The position numbers and the translations under genes were made by a program. Below the pieces are notes generated by a model. That model saw only the letters and a program-made list of their open reading frames with translations, searched no databases and was not told the origin of the DNA. From positions 1-21,593 of IMG/VR virus record IMGVR_UViG_3300030105_000746: 21,593 bases of DNA; one strand, given 5' to 3'. This DNA is from a virus. Shown here one piece after another: positions 1,940-17,633 of the stretch (position 1 is the stretch's first letter; every line of letters begins with the position of its first letter).

Positions 1940-1956
1940 TTAGAAACTCCTAAAAA

Positions 1957-2394
1957 TTAACTGACAGTAACAGTCCAAGTGATTGTAATTGCGTCAGCTG
2001 AACCTTTATTAACTACTGCAAATTCAGTATGGCATAACAGAGTTCCGCCGGAAGAAGCATTAAAAATACCTGCTTCTACTATGGCACCTGTTGACACACC
2101 GGCTGCAAATGTAGCTATGTAAGTTACTACATTGTTGGAAACAGCTGCGCTAGTAAGGGATACCCTACCACTAAGTTCTGTTCCTAAAGTAGTATCGGCG
2201 ACTGCTGGGTTAGTAGTATCTGTTCCAAGAGCCATGTGTGTCATAGCTGCTGGGCTGTTTGAAGTAGTTTTTAACATACTTGCAGCTACAAAAGCTTTAC
2301 CCGCAGTAGTAACTAAGTTATCAATATCGCGTACAACTTTGCCGTTTAGCTCAATTTGTAGTCTACCTGTTATATTAAAGCCATCATTAATCAT
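1957..2394 (-). CDS. Phage tail fibre-associated structural protein
   Basis: This 145-residue protein is beta-rich and follows a pattern I have seen in many phage tail-tip proteins. LQIELNGKVVRDIDNLVTTAGKAFVA lies near the start. MTHMALGTDTTNPAVADTTLGTELSGR comes next, then TYIATFAAGVSTGAIVEAGIFN, and finally the C-terminal ITITWTVTVS. These proteins sit just ahead of or among fibre genes and are usually annotated as fibre or putative structural proteins. The ribosome site AGGAG overlaps the previous stop codon, and the start ATG is at 2394. It is followed by 17 bases and then the fibre gene. No enzymatic feature is visible. Attachment of the fibre to the tail is an inference from position. 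Confidence 0.6.
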   Translation of the reverse strand: MINDGFNITGRLQIELNGKVVRDIDNLVTTAGKAFVAASMLKTTSNSPAAMTHMALGTDTTNPAVADTTLGTELSGRVSLTSAAVSNNVVTYIATFAAGVSTGAIVEAGIFNASSGGTLLCHTEFAVVNKGSADAITITWTVTVS

Positions 2395-2402
2395 ATTTTC
2401 TC

Positions 2403-3074
2403 CTAATTAAATGCAAAAGTGCCCAGTACGGATGCATTCAAAACGCTGTTTGCACCGGAAATATGTAGAACACTTATCGATTCGGATATTGTAGCACTAT
2501 CTGCAGCGGATGTGCTAAAACTATAAGCCAGGGCTTCCGCTAGGGAAGGGGTTTCTGTAAGTGCTTTTGCAAGAGCCGTTGCTGTTATGGCGTCTGACAT
2601 AGCAGGGGTATCAGTTAAAGTAGAAGAATACGCTAAAGTTGCAAGCTCACTTAGGGTAGTTGAATGTCCAAGACCAGTAGATACGTCGGTGGTTAAAGGA
2701 TCGTCGTTGCTTGCAGTGTCAACTAAGCTTACTGACTCAGTAAAAGCCCTTACAAAATTCTTACGGAAAAATACAAGGTTGTCGCCCATTGACACAGATT
2801 CTGTTTGTGTTGCTAAAGTAAAGCCTATAGCGGCTTGTTCTTCTAAAGTGGCTGTATCTACTAGAACTTTAGAAAAAGTTATAACGTCTACAGAGTCTGT
2901 AATAGAAAGAATTAAAGCGTTTGGATGCCCAACAGTAAAGAATAAATCTTTACTAAATGCATCAAGCGTTACATCTACAGCCGACAAATTTACATACTGT
3001 ACAACACCGTGGATGTCTGTAAATGTAACAGTTGATCTTAAATCAACGTAGGTAAATGTTTGTTTGAACGCCAT
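2403..3074 (-). CDS. Degenerate-repeat tail-tip protein, function unknown
   Basis: This 223-residue protein opens with a short beta-type domain (residues 1-55) and continues with loose repeats of about 18-20 residues. The theme is (T/S)-(E/D)-(S/T/P)-x-(S/T)-(L/M/I)-x-(D/E). Examples are SITDSVDVITF, VDTATLEEQAA, QTESVSMGDNL, FTESVSLVDTA, LTDTPAMSDAI, LTETPSLAEAL and ADSATISESIS. It is rich in Ser, Thr, Ala and Asp and low in Lys, Trp and Cys. Such repeats are known in virion surface and fibre proteins; a beta-solenoid or extended trimeric stalk is possible. It overlaps the upstream stop by 1 base (TAATG). Its own stop is merged with the next ribosome site (TAGGAG). I recognise no named family. 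Its place between an Ig-like protein and fibre genes suggests a host-contact or linker role. Confidence 0.5.
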   Translation of the reverse strand: MAFKQTFTYVDLRSTVTFTDIHGVVQYVNLSAVDVTLDAFSKDLFFTVGHPNALILSITDSVDVITFSKVLVDTATLEEQAAIGFTLATQTESVSMGDNLVFFRKNFVRAFTESVSLVDTASNDDPLTTDVSTGLGHSTTLSELATLAYSSTLTDTPAMSDAITATALAKALTETPSLAEALAYSFSTSAADSATISESISVLHISGANSVLNASVLGTFAFN

Positions 3075-3451
3075 TAATCAAAATCTTCTCGAATTTTGAA
3101 TTTAACTAAATCTTGCACTGTCTGAATGTTGCCATCACTTTTTGTGTACTCAAGTTCACCCTCAAAGGTCCCCGCTTCAGTCCACGTTCCCGTAGGAAAA
3201 GTAATAGAACACTGCCCAGCAGACCCGCCGCTTATTAAAGTGGCTGTAATAGTTTTAGTAATTACAGTGGATCCCACTTTGCGTATGCGCAGTTTAACAA
3301 CCCCGCTGGATAAATTAACAGCTTCCCACGTAGTACTATCATCAGCGTCTAGCGTAAAACCAGATGCCGCAGCATTGCTATCTTTTAAAGTAAAGTTTAA
3401 CTGTGGAAGAGTGTCCCCCACTACTAGTTTTAATGTATCTGAATATGCCAT
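3074..3451 (-). CDS. Ig-like/BppU-like small structural protein of the tail tip
   Basis: This 125-residue protein has the pattern of a small beta-sandwich. LKLVVGDTLPQLNFTLKDSN at the N-terminus, VVKLRIRKVGSTVI in the middle, and GTFEGELEYTKSDGNIQTVQ near the end match the N-terminal domain of BppU-like upper baseplate proteins (DUF2479 type) and related fibre-anchoring domains. It probably helps attach fibres to the tail. The start has a good ribosome site: AAGAGGT ends a few bases before the ATG, placed in the 19-base gap after the giant protein gene. It ends in a TAATG overlap with the next gene. The family call rests on pattern memory, not on a catalytic motif. Confidence 0.6.
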   Translation of the reverse strand: MAYSDTLKLVVGDTLPQLNFTLKDSNAAASGFTLDADDSTTWEAVNLSSGVVKLRIRKVGSTVITKTITATLISGGSAGQCSITFPTGTWTEAGTFEGELEYTKSDGNIQTVQDLVKFKIREDFD

Positions 3452-3470
3452 AAATTACCTCTTAGTATAC

Positions 3471-6400
3471 CTAATTTTCCCTGTCAAACCCACCTACTTG
3501 ATTGTAGCCTGGTATAAAGTCATCTATTTTTAATTTACCCTGTGGGAAATCCCAGAGTTTCTCGAAGGTTGGTCCTAACGGACTAATCCATAATGGGTCT
3601 CCATAATTCTTGCCAGTTATGAATGGCAACATCAACGTTGCCGGTCCAAGGCCCCCGCTTCGGTCTAGAATTTCTACTGCGTATTCGCCGTATCCCATAT
3701 CAAGTGATTTTCTATAGTTTTTCTGGGTTGAATCAACTCCAGGTAAAGCCCACGCCAACCCACCTTTAAATCTTTCTCTTAAATCAAATCCTAACATAGT
3801 TAATGGTATTAGAGTTGCAGCGGTTAAAAGTAATGGCATAGCAGCTTGAGAAACAGAATCTCCTTCTTCACGCCTAGCATTTACCTCTCTTCCCACTCCC
3901 CCAATTACAACTTTGCCATAAGCGTAAAAGAAAGATTTTAGTTGCCAAACCAAAGCAAACCTAGGATCAGAAGCCCAAGCGGGTCTTTCTGAAGCGTTAG
4001 GTCGTACAATTGATTCATCAACAAATCTATATAATGCTACTTTTACTTTTTTACCAGCAGAAGTTTCTAGTGATTGTTCTCCTGCTTCCCAGGCTGCAAC
4101 ATCTTGTGGAGTTAAATTCAGTTCTTTTAAATACCTAATAGAACGTTGATCTCCTTCTGCCGCTTTTTTACCATGGTCAATAATAAAGCTTTTACCCATT
4201 CCGGCCGCAAACATCCTGGTAAACTTAGTAAACCATTCTGTTCCTGTGTATTTAAAAAAGTTTTCATTAAATCGTTTAGAACCTTCGGTCATATAATCCA
4301 TTTCACCAGCGTTAACGTTAAGTAAATTAAGAGCATCGGTGCTAACAGCACCTATGTCGTAAGCTAGTCGTACCGCTTCTTCTTCTCCTTTTAAAGCGTT
4401 CCAAAAAATACTTGCTGTTTCTCTTAGTTTAGGTAGTTCTTTCGACCTAAGTATAGGCCCTGCCACATCAGGAAAAGATGCAAATACTGTTAAAGCTAAC
4501 AAACCAAAAATGTTTGCTGTCAAAGCCCAACTGTTAGCTGTTTTTAGTCTAGGATATTTTACAAAAATTTCTGGTGTAATTTTACCTATAGAGGCAAGAA
4601 CCATACTAGTAGCAATGTCTTTTTCTTTTTCAGTTGGAAGAGAATCAATTAGCCTTTGTATTTCTTTAGCGCCCCCCCTTCTGTTTAATTCTGCTCTTTT
4701 AATTGTAGATGTCATGTAGTTACGTAATGTTTCTGCAGGATCATTTAATAATGAATTTTCATCTGCAGACTCATCGGTAGCGTTTCTAAGTTCTTTGGTT
4801 GGAATATTTTTAAAGGCTTTTGATCTTTCTTTAGAAAGCCCCAACGCAAACTTACCTGCGTCGCTGTAGAGATCAATATTAGTATTTTCAGGGTCGGAAA
4901 TTAAAAGTTCTATAGTTGCTCGCGCTTCTTTTGGAGTCATCTTGTATTGTTTGTTGTTTTCGTCTAAAAATATGTTTCCCTTATTAAATTCTACAAGTAA
5001 GTTTACAAGCTTGTCTTGCAACACAGTGCTGTTTTCTAGGTTAGCTAAAGATATAGAACGAGGAAAATAGTTACTTATCTTGTTTATCCCAGCGTATGTT
5101 TTAAACTCTTCGTCTACATACATTTTTTCTAAGAACACTCTAATTTCTTTGGCTTTAGGGCTTAATTTATTAGTGTTAGTGGTGTTATCCTCCGCTTCAT
5201 ACAAAATCTCCATGGCCTCATCAGTCACTTCGCTTAGTTCTTCAAAGCCTAATATACGTGCTACTTTGTTTGTGTACTCATATATTTTTTGTTGTTTAGC
5301 TTTACTCCAACCTAACTCAGTAGTAGTTGATGATTGTGAGTATAAAATGTTTGCTATTGTTACACCTATAGGCCCAAGTCCCCTAAGCATGTTATCAGCT
5401 GTATAAGTTACTTCTTTACCAAGCCCTAATGCTTTTCTAATCCATTTAGCTGTTTTAGAATCAGACTCTGCTATTTTCTTAGCAACTTTAGCTATTTTAT
5501 CTAAAGCGGGTTTTGACCCTAACTTAGAATCTATTTTAGGCATTTCATCTATAACTATGCTTCGTATAATTGCGCTATTGAACATTCGGTTTGGTGTACG
5601 TTGTGGATTACCTAGTCCTTCTTTTCTAGCAGAAATAAGAGATGTAATATAATCATTAAAAGCAGGCTCTACTTTAAACCTTCTTCTAAATGCTTTAGAC
5701 ATCGTTTCAAAGAAAGCTCTCAGTTTTACAGCTATTCTTTTGTAAATAGCTTCTCCACCATCAGTTGCTTTTGCGGTTTCATCAAGTAAAAACTTAGCAA
5801 TTTGATTAGCGCCATGCTCTTCAAACCTAGCGGATATATTTTTTTCACCTTCCATCCCAGGAAAGTTTAGCTTCTGTTTTAGTTCAAACTTCTTAAAGTT
5901 TTTTACAAGTAATTTATAAGCATTGCTAGTTTTTTTTAGACTCATAGAAAACTCTTGTTCTAAAATAGAGTGGCCTAACTCATGCATTAAAGTGATAGCT
6001 GCTTTGCCTTCTGATTCAGCGCTTGTGCCTTTTTTAGAATCAATTATTATAAAATCTGCGCCGTCTGCTCCAGCTTGATAACTAAGAATCCTACCTCCAG
6101 CATTACCTTGTCGTATAAATTCTTGTTCTTCCATGATTGCATTTAAAACGCCAACGTTTCCTACGTCATTAAAAGTAACTACATCATCAGTAGTAAAGAC
6201 ATAAATGTCGCGTTTGTTTTTAAAATCATTCCTAACAATATTCATAATAGTAGGTAAGAATTTAACGTCTTGGAAAGTCTTTAAAGTTGTTTTTGATAAA
6301 AAAGATATAGGTTTTCTTCTATCAGTCTGAGGTCGTAAAGGGTCTTTAGGTCTGTTTTTAAACTCGTCTGCGGCTCTTGTTTCTCCCACATCTGTAGACT

Positions 6401-9400
6401 CTAAAGCTATTGTTTTTTGTGTGGTGTCTGGTGCTGGCAATGAACTTTGTGCTAAAACAGGGTCATAGCTCCCTTTTTTTTCTAATTGCCTTACAAAACT
6501 AATGCTTCCTTCAATACCTAATCTTTTTTCTACCCGTGCTTTTTCTCTTTTTAAAATGGTTAAATCTTTTGCAAGTTGATTGCTTTCCTTTCTTCTTTCG
6601 GGTTCAGGTACAGACTCTATAATACGACCTGTAGTATTGTCTTTCGTGCTTGCAAATTTTAAAAACTCTACACGTTCTTCTTTAGTTTTAATTGAAGTTT
6701 GTATTTTGTTATACAAACTACCTAATCCACCTTTTTCCAAATTTTTGTTTATTACCCTGGTTATTTTTTTTTGAATTCTAGCAATTAGTTCTCTTGTACG
6801 CTCTTGGTTAGCATCTTGATTTACAGGAACAGTAGCAGACTGGCCAGTAGTACCGCCGGCAGCGCCACTTTCTCCACCAGTAGCTATAAACTCGTCTGGG
6901 TTTAAAGGTTGTGTAGCAGTTCCGGCTAGTTGTTGCCTACTTAAATCTCTTTCTGCCGCGGTGCCTTCTTCTTCTGTTTTTAATGCAACTCGTAAAGCAG
7001 CTAGTTCTTGTCCAACATTTTCGTATTCTTCATTTGGTTCGGCTTCTGGGTTATCTTCAAGTTCTTGTATACGATCTTGCAACTTAGTACTTACATCAGA
7101 AAACTCGCCACGTTCTGCGGCTAGTGTTGTCATAGAAAATTCTTGATCTCCTCTGCCTTTTGTATAAACAATAGCGTCTGCTTCTTCTTCTGCGGTTAGT
7201 TCTCCTATTGGTTTACCATTCCAAAAAAACTCATACCCTAATACTAGAGCTTCTGCTGCAGCTACTTGAAAACCTTGGTTAGCAGTTTCTAAATCGCCAG
7301 TAGCAGTAGCTTGAGATTTAGTTCTATTGTTATATCCACGGCCAAAATTAGTAAGCCTTGGCATATCCATAGGCTGAGCCCCTTCTCCTTTTTCTTTATT
7401 TGTTGGAGTTATAATTGTCCAGGGGGAGCCTTTATATTTCCTAGCCGTATTTTTTGATTCTTTTACCCAATGCGCAACTTCTACATCCATATCTAACTCA
7501 CCCGGTAAGCTGTACTTAAGCATGCCGTGACGAGGCGTTCCGTCTTCATCTTGTCCAACTTCAATAATATCGTAGTAAAACGCTTGTCCTGCTTCTTTAG
7601 ATCTTTTTGTAAAATTTCTAAGAAGAGCGCCAGAATAAATATTAGCTTTTATGTTATCAACAAGATCAGGTTGAAATCCAAAAGCATAAACCAAAGCATT
7701 TTCTTTGTCTGTTTCGTAAGCTTCTGCTTCTGTCCTACCTTTTCCTCCACTATCTTCTGTTTGACTTTTTACTAACGTTGGATCATTAGCTTTCCAACCA
7801 GGGGTTTCAGCTTTTTTTTCTTTATTTTGGGATTCATGTTTTGCAGATTTAATTGGATCCACTTTAGAACCTGGTTCATCTGTAACTAACTCAGACTCAA
7901 AAGAAGTTGCTCCCATTGCACCAGCTGCGAAAGATGCCATACGATCATCAAGAGCTGATAAATCTAATTCGTCAACTTGTTCATCTTGTGACGCTATGCC
8001 TTTTAATTCTTGTTGAAGTTGGCCATCCAGGTTTGATCCGTCAGTAGGACTTTGTCCTTGTCTAATAAGTTCAACAGTTTCAAAGTCTTGTCTTAAAGTC
8101 TGTTGTTTTTCTGGAGATAGGTTTTCTATTCCTTTTGTGGGTAAACCTTTTTTTACATTTTCCCTATCTTTAATTTGTATCTCTTTTAAAAGACCTTGAT
8201 ACCTAGCAATTAACGCCGCATCTTCTCTAGAAGTTTGTTGGTCCTCAAGATCCATACTACGTCTTTTAGGTTGTTGTTCTGCATCCTCAAAAAGTTCTTT
8301 TTGTATAGGAGTAACAGCATTTTTACGTTCTTCAACGTGTTGTTCTACAGGCTTGGTGACTATGTTTGCTTTAGGGCCAAACAGCTTTATAGCTGCTTTT
8401 ACTGCACCATCTTGGTCTTGCGAGTTTGTATTTTGATACCAAATAGGTACGCCTTGTTTATTTAAAACCTCAACAACTAGGTCTCCAGCTTTGTCTCTAC
8501 CATGAGAATAACCTAAGATTTGAGAAAGGACGCTATCTAAAACATTTGTGTCATATAATCCATCCCCTTCAGTCTGTGCTTCAAACCTATTTAAAAGCTC
8601 TGCGTTTGAACTTAACAACATACCCATAGACTTACTGGCTTGTTTATCTCCAGCTATGTGTTGAGTAACGCCCGCATTTACTAGTCTTTCTCCTAGTTCT
8701 GGTTTGGTTTTTAATAACTGGGCAAGCTGATTAAAGCTATCGGGGTCTATATAAACCGCTTCTTTGTTATTAGTAGGGTCTAGCATAGCTTCTAGTTGAG
8801 CTTCTAACCAAGCTTCTGGTTCTGTATACACGGTGCCCGGTTCGTTTTCGCCGTAGCGTTCTTTGTAAAACTTTTCTAGTTGAGCCTTATTGTGTTGTTC
8901 TTTTATATAGCCTCTAGCTTTAGTAATAACTTTACTTGGGCCACTAGCAATTCCAGTTACTGTACCACCAGCAGCACCAATACCAGCACCCCCAAAAAAC
9001 CCCATAAATAAAGCTTGTCCTCTATCAAGATTAGCCATAGCTGATGTGTAATCATCATCAATTGCAAACTTTTGTTGTACAGTTATTTCTTCTTGTAATA
9101 GTTCAGTAAGTCCTTCAACGCTTGAAGATTTTGCAGCCCCAGCAGTTATAGACTGTAAAATAGTCTTATGAGCCTGGCCACTGCCTTTTTTCATTTGGTT
9201 TAAAAAACCTTTAAACACTAAAGCTTCACCGCCTACCCCTATTGCTGTAAATGGCACACCAAGTCCTAAAGATTGAAAGGCTTGAATTGGGTCAGTCATG
9301 CCTTGTTCTGCAAAAGTACCAAAAGCTATACCAGCTCCCTGTGGGTACTCTTGACTTACAGCACCTACAACTGCTCCACGTTTTGCGTATATTGCTCTTT

Positions 9401-10022
9401 TTCCCATTCGTTTTCTATAAACTTGATAAGCACCTTCTAACATATCAGTTTCATCTTTATTTAGCGTTAGAGCTTTCATTCGCTTTTTAGCAATTCTAGC
9501 TATTTCTTTTTTAGCTATATTGCCAGTTAAGCCTTTAGCAAACGCACCCGATGCAAACCCTACAAAAGTACCTCCAACAGCCCCCCCAGGGCCTGCAAGA
9601 ATTGCGCCGGCTCCTGCGCCTGCTAAACCGGAAATGAAACTATTAATAGCTGAAGGGCCAAATTGACCTGTTGCGCTGGATACTTGATTAATAAAGCCCC
9701 CAAAAGTTGGCTCGTCTAGAAACTTATGGAAGTCTTCAACGGGCTCCATAATAGCTCCCGCATAGCTTTCATTCCTTTCAGCTTGCGCAATATTATTACG
9801 CATAGCAGTTTCGTCGCCTTTTATTGAATTAGCTAAAGCTGAAAAATAATTTAAGTTAGCAGCTACATTGTAACCACCAGATTGAAAACCTTTTTTAAAG
9901 ATTTTTACTGGGTCTTTTAATTCTCCTCTAGAAGAAGGCTGTTCGGTATAAGTACCGGGTACTTCATATGCCTCCTCTTGACCAACTTTTTGTGTATAAG
10001 CCTGCGGTACTTTACTAGCCAC
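3471..10022 (-). CDS. Giant internal virion / ejection protein with zincin-type metallopeptidase motif
   Basis: This 2183-residue protein starts with GTG at 10022, directly after the previous stop. Residues 125-165 and about 337-362 are Gly/Ala-rich hydrophobic segments. The middle (380-1250) is charged, with coiled-coil stretches and low-complexity linkers. At 1347-1351 it has HELGH within ITLMHELGHSILEQEF, the zinc site of metallopeptidases. EEHGANQIAK at 1401 follows, giving a candidate third ligand (Glu1401 or 1402), the spacing of gluzincins. NYFPR at 1651 and FVDESIVRPNASERPAWASD near 2000 are phrases I know from phage 'large polyvalent' and giant internal proteins. Hydrophobic segments at about 1833-1856 and 2059-2080 could span a membrane. 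The likely role is to leave the capsid with the DNA and form or service the conduit through the envelope. The protease target is unknown. There is no frameshift over 6.5 kb. Confidence 0.8.
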   Translation of the reverse strand: MASKVPQAYTQKVGQEEAYEVPGTYTEQPSSRGELKDPVKIFKKGFQSGGYNVAANLNYFSALANSIKGDETAMRNNIAQAERNESYAGAIMEPVEDFHKFLDEPTFGGFINQVSSATGQFGPSAINSFISGLAGAGAGAILAGPGGAVGGTFVGFASGAFAKGLTGNIAKKEIARIAKKRMKALTLNKDETDMLEGAYQVYRKRMGKRAIYAKRGAVVGAVSQEYPQGAGIAFGTFAEQGMTDPIQAFQSLGLGVPFTAIGVGGEALVFKGFLNQMKKGSGQAHKTILQSITAGAAKSSSVEGLTELLQEEITVQQKFAIDDDYTSAMANLDRGQALFMGFFGGAGIGAAGGTVTGIASGPSKVITKARGYIKEQHNKAQLEKFYKERYGENEPGTVYTEPEAWLEAQLEAMLDPTNNKEAVYIDPDSFNQLAQLLKTKPELGERLVNAGVTQHIAGDKQASKSMGMLLSSNAELLNRFEAQTEGDGLYDTNVLDSVLSQILGYSHGRDKAGDLVVEVLNKQGVPIWYQNTNSQDQDGAVKAAIKLFGPKANIVTKPVEQHVEERKNAVTPIQKELFEDAEQQPKRRSMDLEDQQTSREDAALIARYQGLLKEIQIKDRENVKKGLPTKGIENLSPEKQQTLRQDFETVELIRQGQSPTDGSNLDGQLQQELKGIASQDEQVDELDLSALDDRMASFAAGAMGATSFESELVTDEPGSKVDPIKSAKHESQNKEKKAETPGWKANDPTLVKSQTEDSGGKGRTEAEAYETDKENALVYAFGFQPDLVDNIKANIYSGALLRNFTKRSKEAGQAFYYDIIEVGQDEDGTPRHGMLKYSLPGELDMDVEVAHWVKESKNTARKYKGSPWTIITPTNKEKGEGAQPMDMPRLTNFGRGYNNRTKSQATATGDLETANQGFQVAAAEALVLGYEFFWNGKPIGELTAEEEADAIVYTKGRGDQEFSMTTLAAERGEFSDVSTKLQDRIQELEDNPEAEPNEEYENVGQELAALRVALKTEEEGTAAERDLSRQQLAGTATQPLNPDEFIATGGESGAAGGTTGQSATVPVNQDANQERTRELIARIQKKITRVINKNLEKGGLGSLYNKIQTSIKTKEERVEFLKFASTKDNTTGRIIESVPEPERRKESNQLAKDLTILKREKARVEKRLGIEGSISFVRQLEKKGSYDPVLAQSSLPAPDTTQKTIALESTDVGETRAADEFKNRPKDPLRPQTDRRKPISFLSKTTLKTFQDVKFLPTIMNIVRNDFKNKRDIYVFTTDDVVTFNDVGNVGVLNAIMEEQEFIRQGNAGGRILSYQAGADGADFIIIDSKKGTSAESEGKAAITLMHELGHSILEQEFSMSLKKTSNAYKLLVKNFKKFELKQKLNFPGMEGEKNISARFEEHGANQIAKFLLDETAKATDGGEAIYKRIAVKLRAFFETMSKAFRRRFKVEPAFNDYITSLISARKEGLGNPQRTPNRMFNSAIIRSIVIDEMPKIDSKLGSKPALDKIAKVAKKIAESDSKTAKWIRKALGLGKEVTYTADNMLRGLGPIGVTIANILYSQSSTTTELGWSKAKQQKIYEYTNKVARILGFEELSEVTDEAMEILYEAEDNTTNTNKLSPKAKEIRVFLEKMYVDEEFKTYAGINKISNYFPRSISLANLENSTVLQDKLVNLLVEFNKGNIFLDENNKQYKMTPKEARATIELLISDPENTNIDLYSDAGKFALGLSKERSKAFKNIPTKELRNATDESADENSLLNDPAETLRNYMTSTIKRAELNRRGGAKEIQRLIDSLPTEKEKDIATSMVLASIGKITPEIFVKYPRLKTANSWALTANIFGLLALTVFASFPDVAGPILRSKELPKLRETASIFWNALKGEEEAVRLAYDIGAVSTDALNLLNVNAGEMDYMTEGSKRFNENFFKYTGTEWFTKFTRMFAAGMGKSFIIDHGKKAAEGDQRSIRYLKELNLTPQDVAAWEAGEQSLETSAGKKVKVALYRFVDESIVRPNASERPAWASDPRFALVWQLKSFFYAYGKVVIGGVGREVNARREEGDSVSQAAMPLLLTAATLIPLTMLGFDLRERFKGGLAWALPGVDSTQKNYRKSLDMGYGEYAVEILDRSGGLGPATLMLPFITGKNYGDPLWISPLGPTFEKLWDFPQGKLKIDDFIPGYNQVGGFDREN

Positions 10023-12893
10023 TTACTTTCTCTTTTTTGCTCTTTGTTCGATATAGTTTGCAAGTTCGCCCTGGCCCACCTTTGCAGTAAAAGCTTCCCA
10101 GTCCATACTTTTCTCTGTGGGTAGTTGACTAGAACCTACGGTGTTAGTAAATTGAATACGAATTGGTTTTGGGTCACCATTGGGTTTTTTAGCGTCGCCA
10201 TAAATAATTTCAAAGTTATCAAAATCACCACCTAATGTTTCTGTTCTTTTTCCCCTAAGTAAGACATCTCCAATCCAATCAACTAACCCTTCTGAACTTC
10301 CTCCAATCTCATCATCTATAGCGTTTGCTATAACTCCGTCCATAAGCTCTAGCTGTTCCCTGTATACATCCGGATCCAGCCCCGCTCCACCTGATCTAAT
10401 AACTCTAAGGAAAGAAGGCACTGTCTGTTTAAGTTTTGATATAAACACTGCATTGTTAGTGCTGTAATCTAATTTTTTAGAATCTGCAGTAAAACCTCTG
10501 GTTACTGCTGCATCATTCAACGCTTTTAACTCTGTCGTGAAGTCGGTTGCTTGTGTTGCGGCAAATTCATTAATTCTATTTTGTAACTCCTCAGCTCTAA
10601 TATTAGTATTGCGTACATTGTCTGCTGTTGTACTTGGGCTTCCAGTTGCAGCTTCATTCATTAAATCCGAATAAAGAGCTCTTGAATCTGGTACGCTTTT
10701 TCCGCCATTATAAGAATAAGCAATAAGAAGAGCCACTTGTCTAAACTCTCCTTGTTTTAGTATTCCATTTGTAGCCGCTTTAATAAGATCAGCTTTACTA
10801 TTTATGTTTTTTTCTTCTAATAACCCTTGTATTGTTTCAACAGATCCAGGTGATACTTTTTCTAAAGCCGCTATGTTGTCTGGATTATTAAACCATTCGA
10901 TTTGACCTTCTCTATCTTTTGGTATTATAGGAATATCCGAAACACCTGCCACGCCATCTTTGGTTTCTTTTAACGTCTCATCACGCCCAAGAAGATCATC
11001 AACTTTTGTTAGGTTGGCCGCTAGTTCATCTTCATACTTTTGTTTTTGTTTTGAGTTTATTGAAGGATTATTTATAAGTTTTTCTAAAGCGTTGTTTCTG
11101 TTTTTTAGTTTTAAAGTATCTTTTTCACCGACCCTTTTTATTTCTTCTTCTTTTTCTCTTAATTTACCTTCCGTTTTTAAAAGTTGTTCTTTTGCTATTT
11201 TGTATTCTCTGCCCTCTTTTACCGGTATTGTTTTTCCGAAAGCGAATATTGGTATAGCTGTGCCGCCTGCGTCTGCTTTTTCGTCCATAGCAGCAATTCG
11301 CATTGTTAACTTTTCATGTCGTTTTCTAAGAGTGGTGTAACCTTTTTTGTAACTATTAGGTACACTTTCAGAATTAAAAGCCGCAGAGGTTTCATCTATG
11401 TATTGATAGGGTTTGTCTTCTGATTCTGTTTCTGTTTCAGGGGTGCTGCTTTGATTAAACTGTTCTTCTTTAGCTAGCTGACGGGTGCCAGGTAAGTTTT
11501 TTTCTGTCACTGTTCCACTAGCTAAAGCTGAAGTCGGACTTTCTATTTCTTCTGAAGCTGCTGGAGTACTATCATCAGCAGCAGGGGCAGTAGCACCGCC
11601 TGAAGCATAAGTACCGGCTTGAACTTGCGAAATAATTCCATCTAACTCTGCATCGTCCATTTGGCCTGTGGTTTTAATTCCTGACCAACGACCTCTTATT
11701 TTGTCTCTAATCTGTTGTTGGGTAGCATTTGATCCTGCATCTTTAATAGTTCTGTTCATGTACCATTCAAAAAGTTTATCTTGATTTTGTTCTGTAAACA
11801 CGGTGGTATCATCGAACCCAAGTTCTTCAAAACCTCCTCTGTCTTTAATGTCTTTTAGAGTTTTTCCTACAAATTGGTATTTCCCTACGGGCGTATGAAC
11901 ACCTCCTTTTTTTCCAGTTTCAGGGTTTAGCTGTTCTTTAGACCAATTAGCATAATCTCCATCTATTTTAGTAAAATCTAAAATTTGAGCTAGGGTCTGT
12001 TCTGTTACAGGAGGTTGGCCTTTAAATGTAGCTGTCTCTGCATTCTGCCAAAGAGCATTAGCGTTGTTACTGCTTTCATTCATGGTAAGCGTGTTTGTTG
12101 GGGGTGTTCCTGGTGCTGTTCCTGGTGCTGTTCCTGGTGCTGTTCCCCCGTTGGATATGTTTGCTATATCTTCTCCGCCTTCAGCATCTACGATTTCTCC
12201 ATCCTTTCTTAGAGGGTTCAAAGCTTCTCTAGCACCCGCAAGTACTTCAGGAAGTTGGCGAGGAGAACCCTCTCCTTCTCCTCCTATTGCGCTTCCTGCC
12301 ATTTGTTGAATTTTAGTGCGATCATTGTTGTCAAAATTTAATCCGGCTAACGTAGCATACGCAGCTCCGTCTATACCACCTTTTGTAAAAAGATTCATTT
12401 GTTGTGCTTCAAGCACCGTTCCAAAACCTTCAGCGTCCAGTAACATAGGACTTTCATTTTCTCCCGTGCCTCGATCCACGGTAACAGCTTTTACGTCTCC
12501 ATTTTTGTCTCTAATTTGAAGTCCATACCGCGTAACTTTATCCCCATTTGGGAGTGTTGTTGTAAGAACTTTTGGCTTTAATAAATAACCTTGAACTTGT
12601 TGTCCGTCTGAGTCTACGTAGTTGTTAAGACGATTACCAGCATTTAAATAAGTTTCTCCAAGCTCGTCAGACAAACCCATAAATTTATTAACATTTGCAG
12701 ACAAACCACCATCTACTACTCCAAAAATACCTTGAGAAACTACCTCGTTCCCAAGATTTTGATAACCCCTTCTAGTGTTTTCGTCATCTAATTTAGCGGT
12801 TTGTGCTTGGGTATATTTTCTATTTGCTTTATTAGAATAAGCATTATCAAAATTTGCCAACATTGAACCAAAACCAAAATCATTTGCTGCCAT
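10023..12893 (-). CDS. Large internal virion protein with embedded lysozyme/transglycosylase-like domain
   Basis: This 956-residue protein probably rides in the virion and opens the peptidoglycan layer during DNA entry. Residues 1-250 form an N-terminal structural part. A flexible Thr-Ala-Pro-Gly linker at 250-266 leads to a lysozyme-like domain at about 270-430. In that domain NESSNNANAL resembles the ESGGNxNA start of transglycosylase-type enzymes, with Glu273 as candidate catalytic acid. HTPVGKYQFVGKTLKDI (333 onward), then VFTEQNQDKLFEWYMNR, match the GRYQ...QD segments of this superfamily. A polar linker (430-500) and a Lys/Glu-rich coiled-coil stretch (about 520-640) follow. The C-terminal 300 residues have no motif I recognise. 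A weak AGGT lies 8 bases before the ATG. The gene ends directly against the GTG start of the giant protein, suggesting the two are made together. Confidence 0.75.
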   Translation of the reverse strand: MAANDFGFGSMLANFDNAYSNKANRKYTQAQTAKLDDENTRRGYQNLGNEVVSQGIFGVVDGGLSANVNKFMGLSDELGETYLNAGNRLNNYVDSDGQQVQGYLLKPKVLTTTLPNGDKVTRYGLQIRDKNGDVKAVTVDRGTGENESPMLLDAEGFGTVLEAQQMNLFTKGGIDGAAYATLAGLNFDNNDRTKIQQMAGSAIGGEGEGSPRQLPEVLAGAREALNPLRKDGEIVDAEGGEDIANISNGGTAPGTAPGTAPGTPPTNTLTMNESSNNANALWQNAETATFKGQPPVTEQTLAQILDFTKIDGDYANWSKEQLNPETGKKGGVHTPVGKYQFVGKTLKDIKDRGGFEELGFDDTTVFTEQNQDKLFEWYMNRTIKDAGSNATQQQIRDKIRGRWSGIKTTGQMDDAELDGIISQVQAGTYASGGATAPAADDSTPAASEEIESPTSALASGTVTEKNLPGTRQLAKEEQFNQSSTPETETESEDKPYQYIDETSAAFNSESVPNSYKKGYTTLRKRHEKLTMRIAAMDEKADAGGTAIPIFAFGKTIPVKEGREYKIAKEQLLKTEGKLREKEEEIKRVGEKDTLKLKNRNNALEKLINNPSINSKQKQKYEDELAANLTKVDDLLGRDETLKETKDGVAGVSDIPIIPKDREGQIEWFNNPDNIAALEKVSPGSVETIQGLLEEKNINSKADLIKAATNGILKQGEFRQVALLIAYSYNGGKSVPDSRALYSDLMNEAATGSPSTTADNVRNTNIRAEELQNRINEFAATQATDFTTELKALNDAAVTRGFTADSKKLDYSTNNAVFISKLKQTVPSFLRVIRSGGAGLDPDVYREQLELMDGVIANAIDDEIGGSSEGLVDWIGDVLLRGKRTETLGGDFDNFEIIYGDAKKPNGDPKPIRIQFTNTVGSSQLPTEKSMDWEAFTAKVGQGELANYIEQRAKKRK
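12105..12147 (-). repeat. 12-base tandem repeat encoding Thr-Ala-Pro-Gly linker
   Basis: The plus-strand unit TGTTCCTGGTGC is present in three perfect copies (12105-12116, 12117-12128, 12129-12140), followed by a partial copy. On the coding strand it gives Gly-Thr-Ala-Pro repeats at residues of about 250-266 of the lysozyme-bearing virion protein. It is in frame, just before the catalytic domain, and likely acts as a flexible spacer that can change length by slippage. Confidence 0.9.
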
Positions 12894-12902
12894 AATATAT
12901 AC

Positions 12903-13499
12903 CTAAATTGCGAACGCCAATATAGCAGCTGTTGCTAACGAACTGCCCATGCCTACCATTTGTGAAGTGTGAGAAGCCTTTGCAGTTTTAAAAGCCGACG
13001 CTTTTGCTGCAGCATTTTGTGAGGCTGTTCCCATTCCAGACAACGCGCTTCTATTGACGCCTTGTCCAATGTTAATTAAATCAGCAAGAGTAGACTGATT
13101 AATGTCTTTTTGCGCAGTTCTTGCGGTATTTAAACTTCCAGCCAAACCAAGCTGCCCTTGTCTTTGATTAGCAACTTGTTGTTGTTGTCTTTGCGCAACA
13201 CTTAATCCAGCTCCGCCGTAACGGGATATGTTTCTTTCTTGTATACCTTTTGCTATTTCCGTTTGTTTGGCTGCATCTTCCGGAGCCCTATCTATTAAAG
13301 AAGTATCATTTCTCGCTTCTATTAATTTGTTTTCAAACCCTCTATAGTCTTGTATGTAACTTTCATAGTCTTGCCGAGTTATATCAGCAAAGGCTTTTTC
13401 TGGGTCAGTTACGCTTGGAAGACCGGAAGTAGCCATACTGTTTTGGTACTCTACTTCGCCTGTTGTATTTTGTAGAGCTGTGGCCATATTACTTAACAT
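12903..13499 (-). CDS. Second Ala/Gln-rich internal virion protein with hydrophobic C-terminus
   Basis: I place the start at the ATG at 13499, which forms a TAATG with the upstream stop. That gives 198 residues. An in-frame upstream codon at 13535 would add 12 basic residues inside the previous gene and has no better ribosome site. Another ATG lies four codons downstream (13487). The N-terminal 90 residues are polar and charged (DPEKAFADITRQDYESYIQD). A central part has VAQRQQQQVANQRQGQLG, followed by Ala/Ser/Gly-rich helix. The last 18 residues (MVGMGSSLATAAILAFAI) are hydrophobic and could insert into a membrane. This architecture suits a small ejection protein that sits in the capsid core and ends up in the host envelope. 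It resembles its upstream neighbour in composition and may be a paralogue. No catalytic motif is seen. Confidence 0.5.
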   Translation of the reverse strand: MLSNMATALQNTTGEVEYQNSMATSGLPSVTDPEKAFADITRQDYESYIQDYRGFENKLIEARNDTSLIDRAPEDAAKQTEIAKGIQERNISRYGGAGLSVAQRQQQQVANQRQGQLGLAGSLNTARTAQKDINQSTLADLINIGQGVNRSALSGMGTASQNAAAKASAFKTAKASHTSQMVGMGSSLATAAILAFAI

Positions 13500-14128
13500 T
13501 ATCCGCCGCCCCCTGATTGAAATCTTTCGGACCAAGTAGTTTTTCGAGACTTACCATCTAGTGTGCCTGCTTTATCTCTTGTGTAAGTTGTACCGCCAAG
13601 GAAACTTTTGTCCTCCCCCATGTTCTTAAACCCTTGTTTTCCTAATGAGCCCCCAACCTGTACGAAAGCTGCAGTTTGTGCTTCTCTAACTTGTTGTTTA
13701 GCTTTTGCAGCTTGTAAATCTTTTGTGTTTTGAATTCTTGATGCTTGTGCTAACCCAGACATAGCTTCTCCTTGTTGCCCACGCGCAGTTCCTAAAACTC
13801 CAACTTGTTGCTGTCTTTGTGCCGCTAAACCTTGCGCGCTTGCAGCGGCCATTTGTCCAACTGCGGCTGATGCTAAATCAGCGGCTTGGTCTACAGACTT
13901 AGTGCCAGCTAAAGACGGGCCTTGGCCTGTTAAAGACTGCATAGTATCAGCGCCTGCAACTCCACGTGCTACTCCACCTAAATCTTCGCCCATAGACTCA
14001 TCTCGCATTTCCCTAAGAAGGGGTGCGTACATACGGTTAAAATCATTTTTTTCTGCGGTTGCTACAGAGGCTTGTGTTCTTTCTGCTTCACTGGCTTGGT
14101 AATCTTGTGCTTTTGGTTTACTACTCAT
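13499..14128 (-). CDS. Internal virion (ejection) protein candidate, Ala/Gln-rich
   Basis: This 209-residue protein has no enzyme motif. Residues 1-60 are charged and helical. From about 80 to 165 the sequence is dominated by Ala, Gln and Gly (AAASAQGLAAQRQQQVG; LQAAKAKQQVREAQ), with high helical potential. A Gly-rich, basic end follows (SLGKQGFKNMGEDK; last residues FQSGGGG). The composition, and its position between adaptor genes and two giant virion proteins, match the small core/ejection proteins of podoviruses (the place of T7 gp14 or P22 gp7). It shares the QRQQQ core and general layout with the next gene. The ATG overlaps the upstream stop (ATGA). I see no signal peptide. Function is inferred from context. 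Confidence 0.5.
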   Translation of the reverse strand: MSSKPKAQDYQASEAERTQASVATAEKNDFNRMYAPLLREMRDESMGEDLGGVARGVAGADTMQSLTGQGPSLAGTKSVDQAADLASAAVGQMAAASAQGLAAQRQQQVGVLGTARGQQGEAMSGLAQASRIQNTKDLQAAKAKQQVREAQTAAFVQVGGSLGKQGFKNMGEDKSFLGGTTYTRDKAGTLDGKSRKTTWSERFQSGGGG

Positions 14129-16274: not shown

Positions 16275-17420
16275 TTAGTATGCAACATCCAATCTAATTA
16301 CACCAAAGTCTTCAACGCCACCATTGTAGTCGCTGTTAAACTTAGGTTTTTTAAGACCAAAGATTTTACCAATGGAGATACCATTTTGGTTACCGTAGTC
16401 GAAGGTGTCTTCAACTATTTGTGGTAAACCGATATCGGCCATAGCAAGAGCTTGAGCTCCACAGAACAAACAAGCAGAGCCTTCAACAGTCGCATCAGCC
16501 CCCCATTTGTATCCAGCAGAACCAGCATTACCAGAAGCTCCAGAAGCCGCATTCGCTGTATTGAATACGTGTCTGAACTCATGGACCATAATGCCATCAA
16601 CCATTAGACTTGAAGAACCGGAGAACAAGCTATTGCCTGGTCCTCTGACTCCAGCATTTCTGACGTTAGTCAAGAAATCTGAATCAAGTTTAAGGTCAGC
16701 CATTACTTGAGGTGATACAAATAAATGATACACCTCTTCTCCACCTGCGCTTCTTACTCCACGGATGTAGTTGTCTTTAGCATAAGCTTTTAGAGCAACT
16801 AAACATTCGTAAGTGATGGTGTCAGCTGCAACAGTAGCAGTTACATCACCAGCAACAAGTTTGTTTGTAGCATCCCATCTTCTGTGCCTGTTGGCAGTTG
16901 GGGCTGTTACGTCTCCACCAAAAACCATGTCGCCAAGATTTTGTCCTGAATTCAGAACTGGTCTTAAAGCACCACTGTTTTTGAGGGTGTAAGAAATACC
17001 AGAAAGCGTTAAGAACGCTAATTGGTCAATACGATCTGCCATTGCATAAGCAAGTGCGTCACGTGAATTCTCACGGAAATTAACAACTGATTTTTGATCA
17101 GCAAGACGACCCGAAAGTCTGTTTGCGAATCTCAATTGATCCAGTTGTACGACTATGTCGAAAGCTCTTAAAGTCTCTTCATTACCTTCTAAGGTGTTGT
17201 CTCCAATGATACCGTCACCAGACATATCGGCAAGAAGAGTTAAAACTGCTCTTGCTCCTTTTTCTGATTGAGTAAGCTCAGATATTCTCTGAACCATTGC
17301 ATTAGATCCGCTACCTGCGAATTGGTTAATGAAAGACATATTTCTTGCGACACGCCAAAAATCACGAGACCAGATCGTTAATTGTTCGCTGGTCAACGCG
17401 CTAAAGTTTGTGTTAGCCAT
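16275..17420 (-). CDS. Major capsid protein, N4 gp56 / Phage_capsid_3 type
   Basis: This 381-residue protein should build the icosahedral shell (HK97-fold lattice). The sequence pattern fits the N4-gp56-like major capsid family: an N-terminal segment placing Trp-Ser-Arg-Asp before the first helix, the phrase LSGRLADQKSVVNF, then AMADRIDQLAFLTLSG. A later stretch around YHLFVSPQVMADLKLD leads to a C-terminal part with FGLKKPKFNSDYNGG. I choose the ATG at 17420 (MANTNF) over an in-frame TTG at 17435, because GGAGG lies 7 bases before the ATG and the TTG would sit upstream of that site. The gene is flanked by a long leader and followed by a terminator, so it can be transcribed as its own unit. 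Position after portal and scaffold supports the call. Two cysteines close together (LFCGAQ region) are not known to me as a family feature. Confidence 0.93.
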   Translation of the reverse strand: MANTNFSALTSEQLTIWSRDFWRVARNMSFINQFAGSGSNAMVQRISELTQSEKGARAVLTLLADMSGDGIIGDNTLEGNEETLRAFDIVVQLDQLRFANRLSGRLADQKSVVNFRENSRDALAYAMADRIDQLAFLTLSGISYTLKNSGALRPVLNSGQNLGDMVFGGDVTAPTANRHRRWDATNKLVAGDVTATVAADTITYECLVALKAYAKDNYIRGVRSAGGEEVYHLFVSPQVMADLKLDSDFLTNVRNAGVRGPGNSLFSGSSSLMVDGIMVHEFRHVFNTANAASGASGNAGSAGYKWGADATVEGSACLFCGAQALAMADIGLPQIVEDTFDYGNQNGISIGKIFGLKKPKFNSDYNGGVEDFGVIRLDVAY

Positions 17421-17633
17421 TGGGCTATCCTCCAAATAAAATTAAAATAACCAGCCGACTTATGGAGCGGCTCATTGTCCGTATACCCTTTATCGTTAGG
17501 GAAACGTTCTCATAATTTTACGAACATGACGTCGACCAGTTTTACGCCGTGATAGGCGAATACGTTTTTTTACCGTAACGACTCGTGCTAGATATCGGAC
17601 TAGCAACCGAATACTTATATCTTATACTAAGGC
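17421..17633 (-). promoter_or_regulatory. Non-coding leader of the capsid gene, with hairpins and a possible promoter
   Basis: This 213-base stretch is by far the longest gap between genes in the window, and I see no credible reading frame in it. On the minus strand it opens with two TATAAG boxes (17626-17621 and 17619-17614). A poor -35-like TTGGTT lies 16 bases before the second box. Small potential hairpins follow: GCTAG/CTAGC (17604-17587, 8-base loop), CGCC/GGCG (17558-17545, 6-base loop), CCCT/AGGG (17501-17486, or alternatively CGTT/AACG at 17506-17494) and AGCCG/CGGCT (17472-17453, 10-base loop). An AT-rich run and the ribosome site GGAGG (17433-17429) precede the ATG. A late promoter plus a structured 5' leader for abundant capsid mRNA is the likely role. 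The promoter boxes are weak evidence, and a phage polymerase promoter cannot be excluded. Confidence 0.5.
17429..17433 (-). promoter_or_regulatory. Ribosome binding site that fixes the capsid start
   Basis: GGAGG on the minus strand lies 8 bases before the ATG at 17420. It decides between that ATG and the in-frame TTG at 17435, which lies upstream of the site. Confidence 0.8.

What the first reader, a model, noticed from the sequence alone, without database searches (positions are those of the whole stretch)
5800..6010. HELGH zinc-peptidase site inside a 2183-residue ejection protein
Residues 1347-1351 read HELGH inside ITLMHELGHSILEQEF, and EEHGANQIAK follows about 50 residues later, the layout of gluzincin metallopeptidases. 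Zincin-like domains are known in phage 'polyvalent' proteins (Iyer and colleagues' concept), which are thought to act in the host after injection. A protease that travels with the DNA could clear host defence factors, mature virion proteins or open the envelope. The active-site residues look intact, so activity is plausible.
Basis: partly seen in the sequence, partly recalled or inferred. Interest (0 to 1): 0.6.

Follow-up and report, generated by a model that had tools for sequence, protein, structure and literature searches.

The report
Zinc protease inside phage ejection protein
A large protein that this short-tailed phage probably injects into its host along with its DNA carries a well-conserved, probably working zinc-protease domain, while one related phage lineage has lost the whole zinc site but kept the domain, so what the protease does can now be tested directly.

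Summary
HELGH lies at residues 1347-1351 of the 2183-residue minus-strand ORF (window 5970-5984), with EEHGANQIAK at 1401-1410. Homologues settle the third ligand: Glu1402 is invariant in every member that keeps HExxH (consensus F-x-E-W-x-[AS]-D-Q), while position 1401 varies. An AlphaFold2 model of residues 1242-1465 (pLDDT 87.6) has the minimal zincin topology, with HELGH and Glu1402 on the two expected helices; the best solved-structure matches are zincins. The C-terminal part matches T7-gp16/PhiM1 ejection-core proteins, so 'ejection protein' is supported. Of 92 distinct uncut relatives found through the C-terminus alone, 77 keep HExxH plus the Glu, 5 carry another HExxH type, 1 has none, and 9 form one clade that lost the site: HELGE in one, KELGN with Glu-to-Asn in eight. 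That clade still keeps the domain under purifying selection. A hypervariable 'cargo' segment (NADAR, SLOG or 2OG-oxygenase domains in relatives) precedes the zincin. This is a new variant of the known polyvalent-protein plan (phage N4 vRNAP is analogous). Best guess: the zincin processes the ejection protein during or after ejection; proteolysis of host proteins remains open.

The parts
3471..10022 (-). 2183-aa giant internal/ejection protein (P0001), GTG start directly after the stop of the 956-aa gene
   Evidence: C-module relatives are annotated 'virion structural protein' in KPP25/phiR18
8223..10022 (-). N-terminal module, residues 1-600, conserved in 63-70 of 83 diverse relatives up to about residue 550
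6300..8222 (-). variable central 'cargo' segment, residues 601-1241; in relatives 290-1645 aa, some with NADAR, SLOG, 2OG-Fe(II) oxygenase or DUF7831; no known domain in the window's own
5628..6299 (-). zincin metallopeptidase domain, residues 1242-1465
   Evidence: AlphaFold2 pLDDT 87.6, pTM 0.83; VIA-align top rows are zincins; 22 of 78 members hit Pfam M78/IrrE, 18 hit PHROG 87 metallo-protease
5970..5984 (-). HELGH, residues 1347-1351: predicted zinc ligands His1347, His1351 and general base Glu1348
5817..5819 (-). Glu1402, predicted third zinc ligand (F-x-E-[WH]-x-[AS]-[DN]-Q motif)
   Evidence: invariant in A3 and in all intact rows; lies in the helix after the HExxH helix
3474..5627 (-). 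C-terminal helical ejection module, residues 1466-2183, related in fold to PhiM1 and T7 gp16 core proteins
   Evidence: Foldseek 8vb2_A E 7.1e-6; VIA 9jyy_I Z 7.0, 8vb2_A Z 6.0, 7eyb_I Z 5.6; PHROG 30152 at residues 1645-2049
10023..12893 (-). 956-aa upstream protein with a lysozyme-like stretch at residues 296-425 (window 11619-12008), probable virion muramidase and partner ejection protein
   Evidence: tblastn to SIO1 gp24 and ICBM1 'endolysin, lysozyme-like domain'
12903..14128 (-). two small genes (210 and 209 aa) between tail genes and the giant genes, probable small internal proteins (position only)
   Evidence: inference from gene order
16275..17435 (-). major head protein, 55% identical to Pseudomonas phage KPP25/phiR18: places the virion in the KPP25-like podovirus group

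Best explanation
The window protein is a polyvalent-type internal virion protein of a KPP25-like podovirus, probably ejected into the host with the DNA. It has four parts: a conserved N-terminal module, a fast-evolving cargo segment, a gluzincin-type zinc metallopeptidase (residues 1242-1465; ligands His1347, His1351, Glu1402; base Glu1348), and a T7-gp16-like C-terminal ejection module. SHOWN by computation: the domain identity, the conservation of the ligand set, the modular plan and the ejection-core relationship. INFERRED: it binds zinc and is proteolytically active. INFERRED, less sure: its main job is limited proteolysis of the ejected protein itself or its partners during or just after ejection, cutting near the cargo/C-module junction to free cargo from the ejection channel. 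In one clade this activity was lost stepwise while the domain stayed as a structural linker.
For: Zincin topology (N-helix, three strands, HExxH helix 94-120, Glu helix 152-172) at high confidence; structural neighbours are YbeY, SPRTN, M1 aminopeptidases, M61, CapP and BlaR1. Relatives hit M78 (best E 1.3e-7) and M48 families. Intact HExxH+E in 77 of 92 distinct uncut relatives gathered by C-terminus only. In a scan anchored on the Glu motif alone, all 48 distinct proteins also have HExxH 30-70 residues upstream. The zincin always sits between cargo and C-module although the cargo changes completely. Among the closest relatives omega is 0.19-0.28 in the zincin, against 0.28-0.58 in residues 401-1240 and 0.11 in the C-module, more like a conserved internal function than an arms-race effector. 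Ejection role. Processing of polyvalent proteins by their MPTase is the favoured proposal in the literature, with phage P1 DdrB processed before packaging (PMC5512222).
Against: No zinc binding, cleavage or cleavage site is shown. Phage N4 vRNAP, the closest analogue in plan, is packaged unprocessed although it carries HExxH (PMC5512222). One clade of relatives (8 KELGN proteins plus 1 HELGE) lacks the site yet keeps the domain, and at least two members keep enzymatic cargo (SLOG in L035; NADAR and SLOG in L156), so cleavage is not obligatory for carrying cargo. The window's own cargo has no recognisable enzyme. Structural Z-scores are middling (at most 6.8), and plain Foldseek against the PDB found no zincin at significant E.
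Confidence: 0.5

Rival explanations
1. Host-directed protease: the zincin is delivered into the host and cleaves a host protein (defence factor, regulator or transcription protein), as IrrE/ImmA-type peptidases cleave repressors.
For: Closest curated family among relatives is M78 (IrrE/ImmA), whose known members cleave regulators (knowledge of the family). Other injected cargo in relatives (NADAR, SLOG, 2OG oxygenase) looks host- or defence-directed (PMC9503650). Iyer et al. list this possibility.
Against: The domain evolves more slowly than the cargo and is tied in position to the C-module, unlike a freely shuffled effector. One clade did without it.
Confidence: 0.28
2. Mainly structural domain: the zincin fold serves encapsidation, folding or threading of the ejection protein, and metal binding stabilises it; catalysis is secondary or absent.
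For: A monophyletic clade lost all three ligands but keeps the domain under purifying selection (omega 0.11-0.16) in the same place. In N4 the region holding the MPTase is needed for encapsidation without processing (PMC5512222).
Against: 77 of 92 relatives keep the full catalytic set including the general base, and the ligands were lost together rather than drifting one by one across the family. LUZ24-like relatives have the C-module with no HExxH in the ORF, so the fold is not needed for ejection in general.
Confidence: 0.15
3. Fe/alpha-ketoglutarate-dependent HExxH oxygenase: a zincin-like fold used as an oxygenase rather than a peptidase.
For: A solved alphaKG-HExxH domain is among the structural matches (8s5f_F, Z 3.5, 148 aligned), and the N4 structure paper notes HExxH in such enzymes when describing its own HExxH domain (PMC12633501).
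Against: It ranks well below peptidases in the same list, and the better sequence hits of relatives are to peptidase families.
Confidence: 0.05
4. Chance motif in a helical protein.
For: HExxH is a short motif; the window sequence alone hits no Pfam peptidase model.
Against: 0.6% chance per shuffled protein, an invariant ligand set across diverse relatives and a confident zincin model.
Confidence: 0.02

Closest known systems
Zincin-like MPTase domains of phage polyvalent proteins (Iyer et al. 2017, PMC5512222)
   Same: Large virion-type protein, HExxH plus downstream Glu helix, disparate enzymatic domains in the same family of polypeptides, fold as described there
   Different: Not reported there as far as the text searched shows (no NADAR, SLOG, gp16 or M78 in it); attached to a T7-gp16-like ejection module; has a naturally inactivated sister clade
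Phage N4 virion RNA polymerase gp50, C1 zincin + C2 helical domain (PMC12633501)
   Same: Plan: N-terminal domain, enzymatic cargo, HExxH domain, large helical C-terminal domain; last gene of the ejection cassette
   Different: No RNA polymerase here; HELVH...NEFxA zincin not alignable with ours (hhalign probability 10%); C2 not detectably related by sequence
KPP25/phiR18 (Kochitakasuvirus) ORF088-type virion structural protein
   Same: Homologous C-module (27% identity), HExxH in the corresponding place (HESMH), major head protein 55% identical
   Different: A different zincin subfamily (HES[ML]H...ERxAY) not hit by the window-family HMM
T7 gp16 and PhiM1 C4 internal core/ejectosome proteins
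   Same: Fold of the C-terminal module
   Different: Zincin added; the lysozyme-like domain is in the neighbouring 956-aa protein instead
Peptidase M78 (IrrE/ImmA)
   Same: 22 of 78 relatives match; gluzincin layout
   Different: Window sequence itself below threshold; embedded in a giant virion protein

Membership tests
Zincin (gluzincin) metallopeptidase | HExxH on a helix | tested here: met
   residues 106-110 of the model lie in helix 94-120; conserved in 77 of 92 relatives
Zincin (gluzincin) metallopeptidase | third ligand Glu on a downstream helix | tested here: met
   Glu1402 = model residue 161 in helix 152-172; invariant with HExxH
Zincin (gluzincin) metallopeptidase | N-terminal helix, three-stranded sheet, two C-terminal helices | tested here: met
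   H14-25, E31-36, E69-74, E81-86, H94-120, H152-172; zincin neighbours
Zincin (gluzincin) metallopeptidase | ligand side chains converge on one metal | not testable with these tools
   model coordinates are not returned
Zincin (gluzincin) metallopeptidase | zinc-dependent proteolysis | not testable with these tools
   needs protein
Peptidase M78 / IrrE-ImmA (Pfam PF06114) | match to the family profile | tested here: inconclusive
   22 of 78 relatives match at E<0.01 (best 1.3e-7); the window domain itself does not
Polyvalent proteins | several disparate enzymatic domains in one polypeptide | tested here: inconclusive
   met at family level (L154: 2OG oxygenase + DUF7831 + NADAR + zincin; L156: NADAR + SLOG + HELGE domain); only the zincin is recognised in the window protein
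Polyvalent proteins | carried in the virion and injected | tested here: inconclusive
   fold match to ejection cores and 'virion structural protein' annotation of relatives; injection not observed
N4-like virion RNA polymerase | single-subunit RNAP domain | tested here: not met
   no Pfam, NCBIfam or PHROG RNAP match in P0001
N4-like virion RNA polymerase | homologous HExxH C1 domain | tested here: inconclusive
   same motif layout, but hhalign probability 10%
T7 gp16/PhiM1-type ejection core protein | helical core fold of the C-terminal part | tested here: met
   8vb2_A E 7.1e-6; core-protein entries top the VIA list, Z 5.6-7.0
T7 gp16/PhiM1-type ejection core protein | N-terminal transglycosylase domain as in T7 gp16 | tested here: not met
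   none found in P0001; a lysozyme-like stretch is in P0002

The most novel reading that the evidence does not exclude
A widespread group of mostly uncultured, KPP25-like podoviruses uses a zincin-gated injection cassette: a constant N-module and C-module carry exchangeable enzymes (NADAR, SLOG, 2OG oxygenase) into the cell, and the zincin cuts the cassette on arrival to release them. One lineage has switched to a non-cleaving, zinc-free version of the same cassette.
Probability: 0.25. Interest if true: 0.75.

Novelty: new variant of a known kind. Interest (0 to 1): 0.5.

Why it matters
Zincins are described as the commonest domain of phage polyvalent proteins (PMC5512222), yet whether they cut the carrier, other virion proteins or the host is unknown. 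This family offers a clean comparison: active members, one intermediate (HELGE) and a zinc-site-free clade that keeps the same architecture, with cultured relatives (Aeromonas phage phiA008, Pseudomonas phage KPP25) in which it can be tested. It also shows that a giant ejection protein can serve as an exchangeable delivery cassette for NAD/ADP-ribose-related enzymes.

Tried and rejected
1) Direct Pfam, NCBIfam and PDB-sequence searches with P0001 found nothing useful; only the family alignment revealed peptidase hits. 2) Plain Foldseek of the domain model against PDB returned unrelated helical proteins at E>0.06; VIA re-ranking put zincins on top. 3) Homology to the N4 vRNAP zincin or C2 domain: HMM and hhalign gave no support, so only analogy is claimed. 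4) T7 gp16 by sequence profile: no hit; only by fold. 5) Glu1401 as third ligand: rejected, as the position varies. 6) A second zincin elsewhere in the zinc-site-free proteins: no HExxH in them and no second match of the family HMM above noise. 8) Virion proteomics for KPP25: the cited paper (Miyata 2014) was not found in the library; the related 2026 paper has no mass-spectrometry passage. 9) The full 942-residue model had mean pLDDT 63.6; the last 95 residues are not interpretable.

Full report
WHAT IS THERE. The ORF at window 3471..10022 on the minus strand encodes 2183 residues from a GTG start directly behind the 956-aa gene. A HExxH occurs in 0.6% of shuffles of the protein. The window is an IMG/VR virus record of 21,593 bases, likely a fragment: it holds the end of a terminase-like gene, portal, scaffold-like, major head, tail, small internal and giant internal genes and part of a tail-fibre-like gene. 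The portal and major head proteins match PHROG families. The major head protein is 55% identical to Pseudomonas phages KPP25 and phiR18, which places the virion in a KPP25-like podovirus group.

CONSERVATION. The closest relatives (IMG/VR contigs L001-L008) keep HELGH and FEEHGANQ, with synonymous codon differences at the ligand positions. A scan using only the C-terminal part of the protein, then a second one (275 pattern matches, 263 confirmed relatives, best 80 kept) and a scan of bacterial and archaeal genomes, gave a set not selected for the zincin. Of 92 distinct proteins whose ORF is not cut off, 77 have HExxH plus the downstream Glu motif, 5 have a different HExxH type, 9 have a lost site and 1 has none. 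Conversely, a scan selected only by the Glu motif found HExxH 30-70 residues upstream in all 48 distinct proteins. The consensus is HE[LIVMFY]GH followed by F-x-E-W-x-[AS]-D-Q. The Glu before the Trp is invariant among members with an intact HExxH, apart from alignment uncertainty in the most distant rows, which identifies Glu1402, not Glu1401, as the third ligand. The window clade is unusual in having His for the Trp and Asn for the Asp.

FOLD. With 78 rows from fetched loci, AlphaFold2 gave pLDDT 87.6 and pTM 0.83 for residues 1242-1465: helix 14-25, strands 31-36, 69-74 and 81-86, HExxH helix 94-120, a connecting helix 126-141 and the Glu helix 152-172. This is the minimal zincin core described by Iyer et al. 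(PMC5512222). Plain Foldseek against the PDB was not significant. VIA-align of its candidates put zincins on top: YbeY family 1oz9 Z 6.8 (114 aligned, 4.1 A), SPRTN 6mdx Z 6.4, M1 aminopeptidases Z 5.0-6.3, M61, CapP and BlaR1 lower. These Z-scores are middling and support the fold only together with the motif. Of 78 members, 22 match Pfam M78 (IrrE/ImmA; best E 1.3e-7), 5 match M48, and 18 match PHROG 87 'metallo-protease'. The window sequence alone does not reach these thresholds.

EJECTION PROTEIN. A 942-residue model of zincin plus C-terminus (mean pLDDT 63.6) has one significant Foldseek match in the PDB: the PhiM1 ejectosome protein 8vb2_A at E 7.1e-6. The top VIA rows are T7-like core proteins: 9jyy_I Z 7.0 over 262 residues, 8vb2_A Z 6.0 and 7eyb_I Z 5.6. 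Relatives in KPP25 and phiR18 are annotated as virion structural proteins. The preceding 956-aa gene has a lysozyme-like stretch. So the label 'ejection protein' is well supported by inference, though injection itself is not shown.

MODULAR PLAN. Segment HMMs from the close clade hit 63-70 of 83 diverse relatives for residues 1-550, few (0-12) for most of residues 601-1250, about 46-49 for the zincin and 83 for residues 1801-2150. Between the N-module and the zincin lies a segment of 290-1645 residues (median 460). In relatives it can hold 2OG-Fe(II) oxygenase plus DUF7831 plus NADAR (L154), NADAR plus YAcAr/SLOG (L156), or cpYpsA/SLOG (L035). In phages, NADAR and SLOG domains are usually standalone proteins and are thought to counter NAD-derived defence signals (PMC9503650). 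In the window protein this segment has no recognisable domain. Among close relatives omega is 0.28-0.58 in residues 401-1240, 0.19-0.28 in the zincin and 0.11 in the C-module.

A NATURAL ZINC-SITE LOSS. Eight distinct proteins read KELGN in place of HELGH and Asn in place of the third-ligand Glu; a ninth (L156) reads HELGE with the Glu kept. The HMM aligns them to the same domain. On a tree built only from columns after the zincin, these form one clade (SH-aLRT 100) nested among intact members, with the HELGE protein as sister to the KELGN proteins. A stepwise loss is the simplest reading. The domain remains under purifying selection there (omega 0.11-0.16, like intact clades). Because L035 and L156 still carry SLOG or NADAR cargo, catalysis is not needed for having cargo. 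LUZ24-like relatives (tf, BroderSalsa) have a shorter protein with the C-module and no HExxH, so catalysis is not needed for ejection in general.

HOW IT PROBABLY WORKS. The zincin keeps one position at the border between changing cargo and constant ejection module, evolves more slowly than the cargo, and was lost as a unit in one lineage. I infer that it is active and most likely trims the ejected protein or its partners. Iyer et al. favour processing for polyvalent MPTases, citing P1 DdrB, but N4 vRNAP is packaged unprocessed (PMC5512222), so cutting after ejection fits better than cutting before. A host-protein target is the main rival; the M78 link makes it reasonable. A purely structural role is third.

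COMPARISON WITH KNOWN SYSTEMS. The plan parallels N4 vRNAP: N-terminal domain, enzyme, HExxH domain C1, helical C2 (PMC12633501; gene order). An alignment of nine N4-like C1 domains against this family gave hhalign probability 10%, so this is analogy, not shown homology. I file the finding as a new variant of the polyvalent-protein kind.

Noticed in passing
L154 (cargo at 648-5336), L156 (1221-6158), L035 protein residues 1167-1312: Enzymatic cargo inside giant ejection proteins: 2OG-Fe(II) oxygenase + DUF7831 + NADAR; NADAR + YAcAr SLOG; cpYpsA SLOG.
   Followed up: partly
L029, L030, L031, L034, L035, L039, L113, L180 and L156: Clade with the zinc site lost (KELGN plus Asn; HELGE in L156) but the domain kept under purifying selection.
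   Followed up: yes
window 11619-12008 (-), residues 296-425 of the 956-aa protein: Lysozyme-like stretch shared with Roseobacter phage SIO1 gp24 and Lentibacter phage ICBM1; probable virion muramidase.
   Followed up: partly
L014 (Roseobacter phage CRP-810) 665-6715 and 6687-9206: The C-module is a separate gene (gp34); the gene before it (gp35, 2016 aa) has two HExxH sites and, by eye, an ART-like FYHGT...GPGIYL stretch: a split version of the same plan.
   Followed up: no
L051 protein residues 29-107; start of phiA008 UIS74281 (L013 2961-): Staphylococcal-nuclease-like domain at the N-terminus of the giant protein (Pfam for L051; by eye for phiA008).
   Followed up: no
L012, L053, L054, L056, L058: KPP25-type members carry a different HES[ML]H...ERxAY zincin in the same place, not hit by the window-family HMM: possible replacement of one zincin by another.
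   Followed up: partly
P0001 residues 1-550 and 1101-1200 against L006, L007: Mosaic: N-module 30-57% identical while residues 601-1100 and 1201-2183 are about 65-91%; dS also differs between regions, which suggests recombination inside the gene.
   Followed up: no
L115 (Motiliproteus coralliicola, 1.54-Mb scaffold); L116, L117 (Endozoicomonas): Relatives inside bacterial assemblies, one in a large scaffold of a named strain: probable prophages, useful for host assignment.
   Followed up: no
window 2-1939 (-): Tail-fibre-like protein with repeated ATARTIGGTSFDGSANI units, cut by the window end.
   Followed up: no
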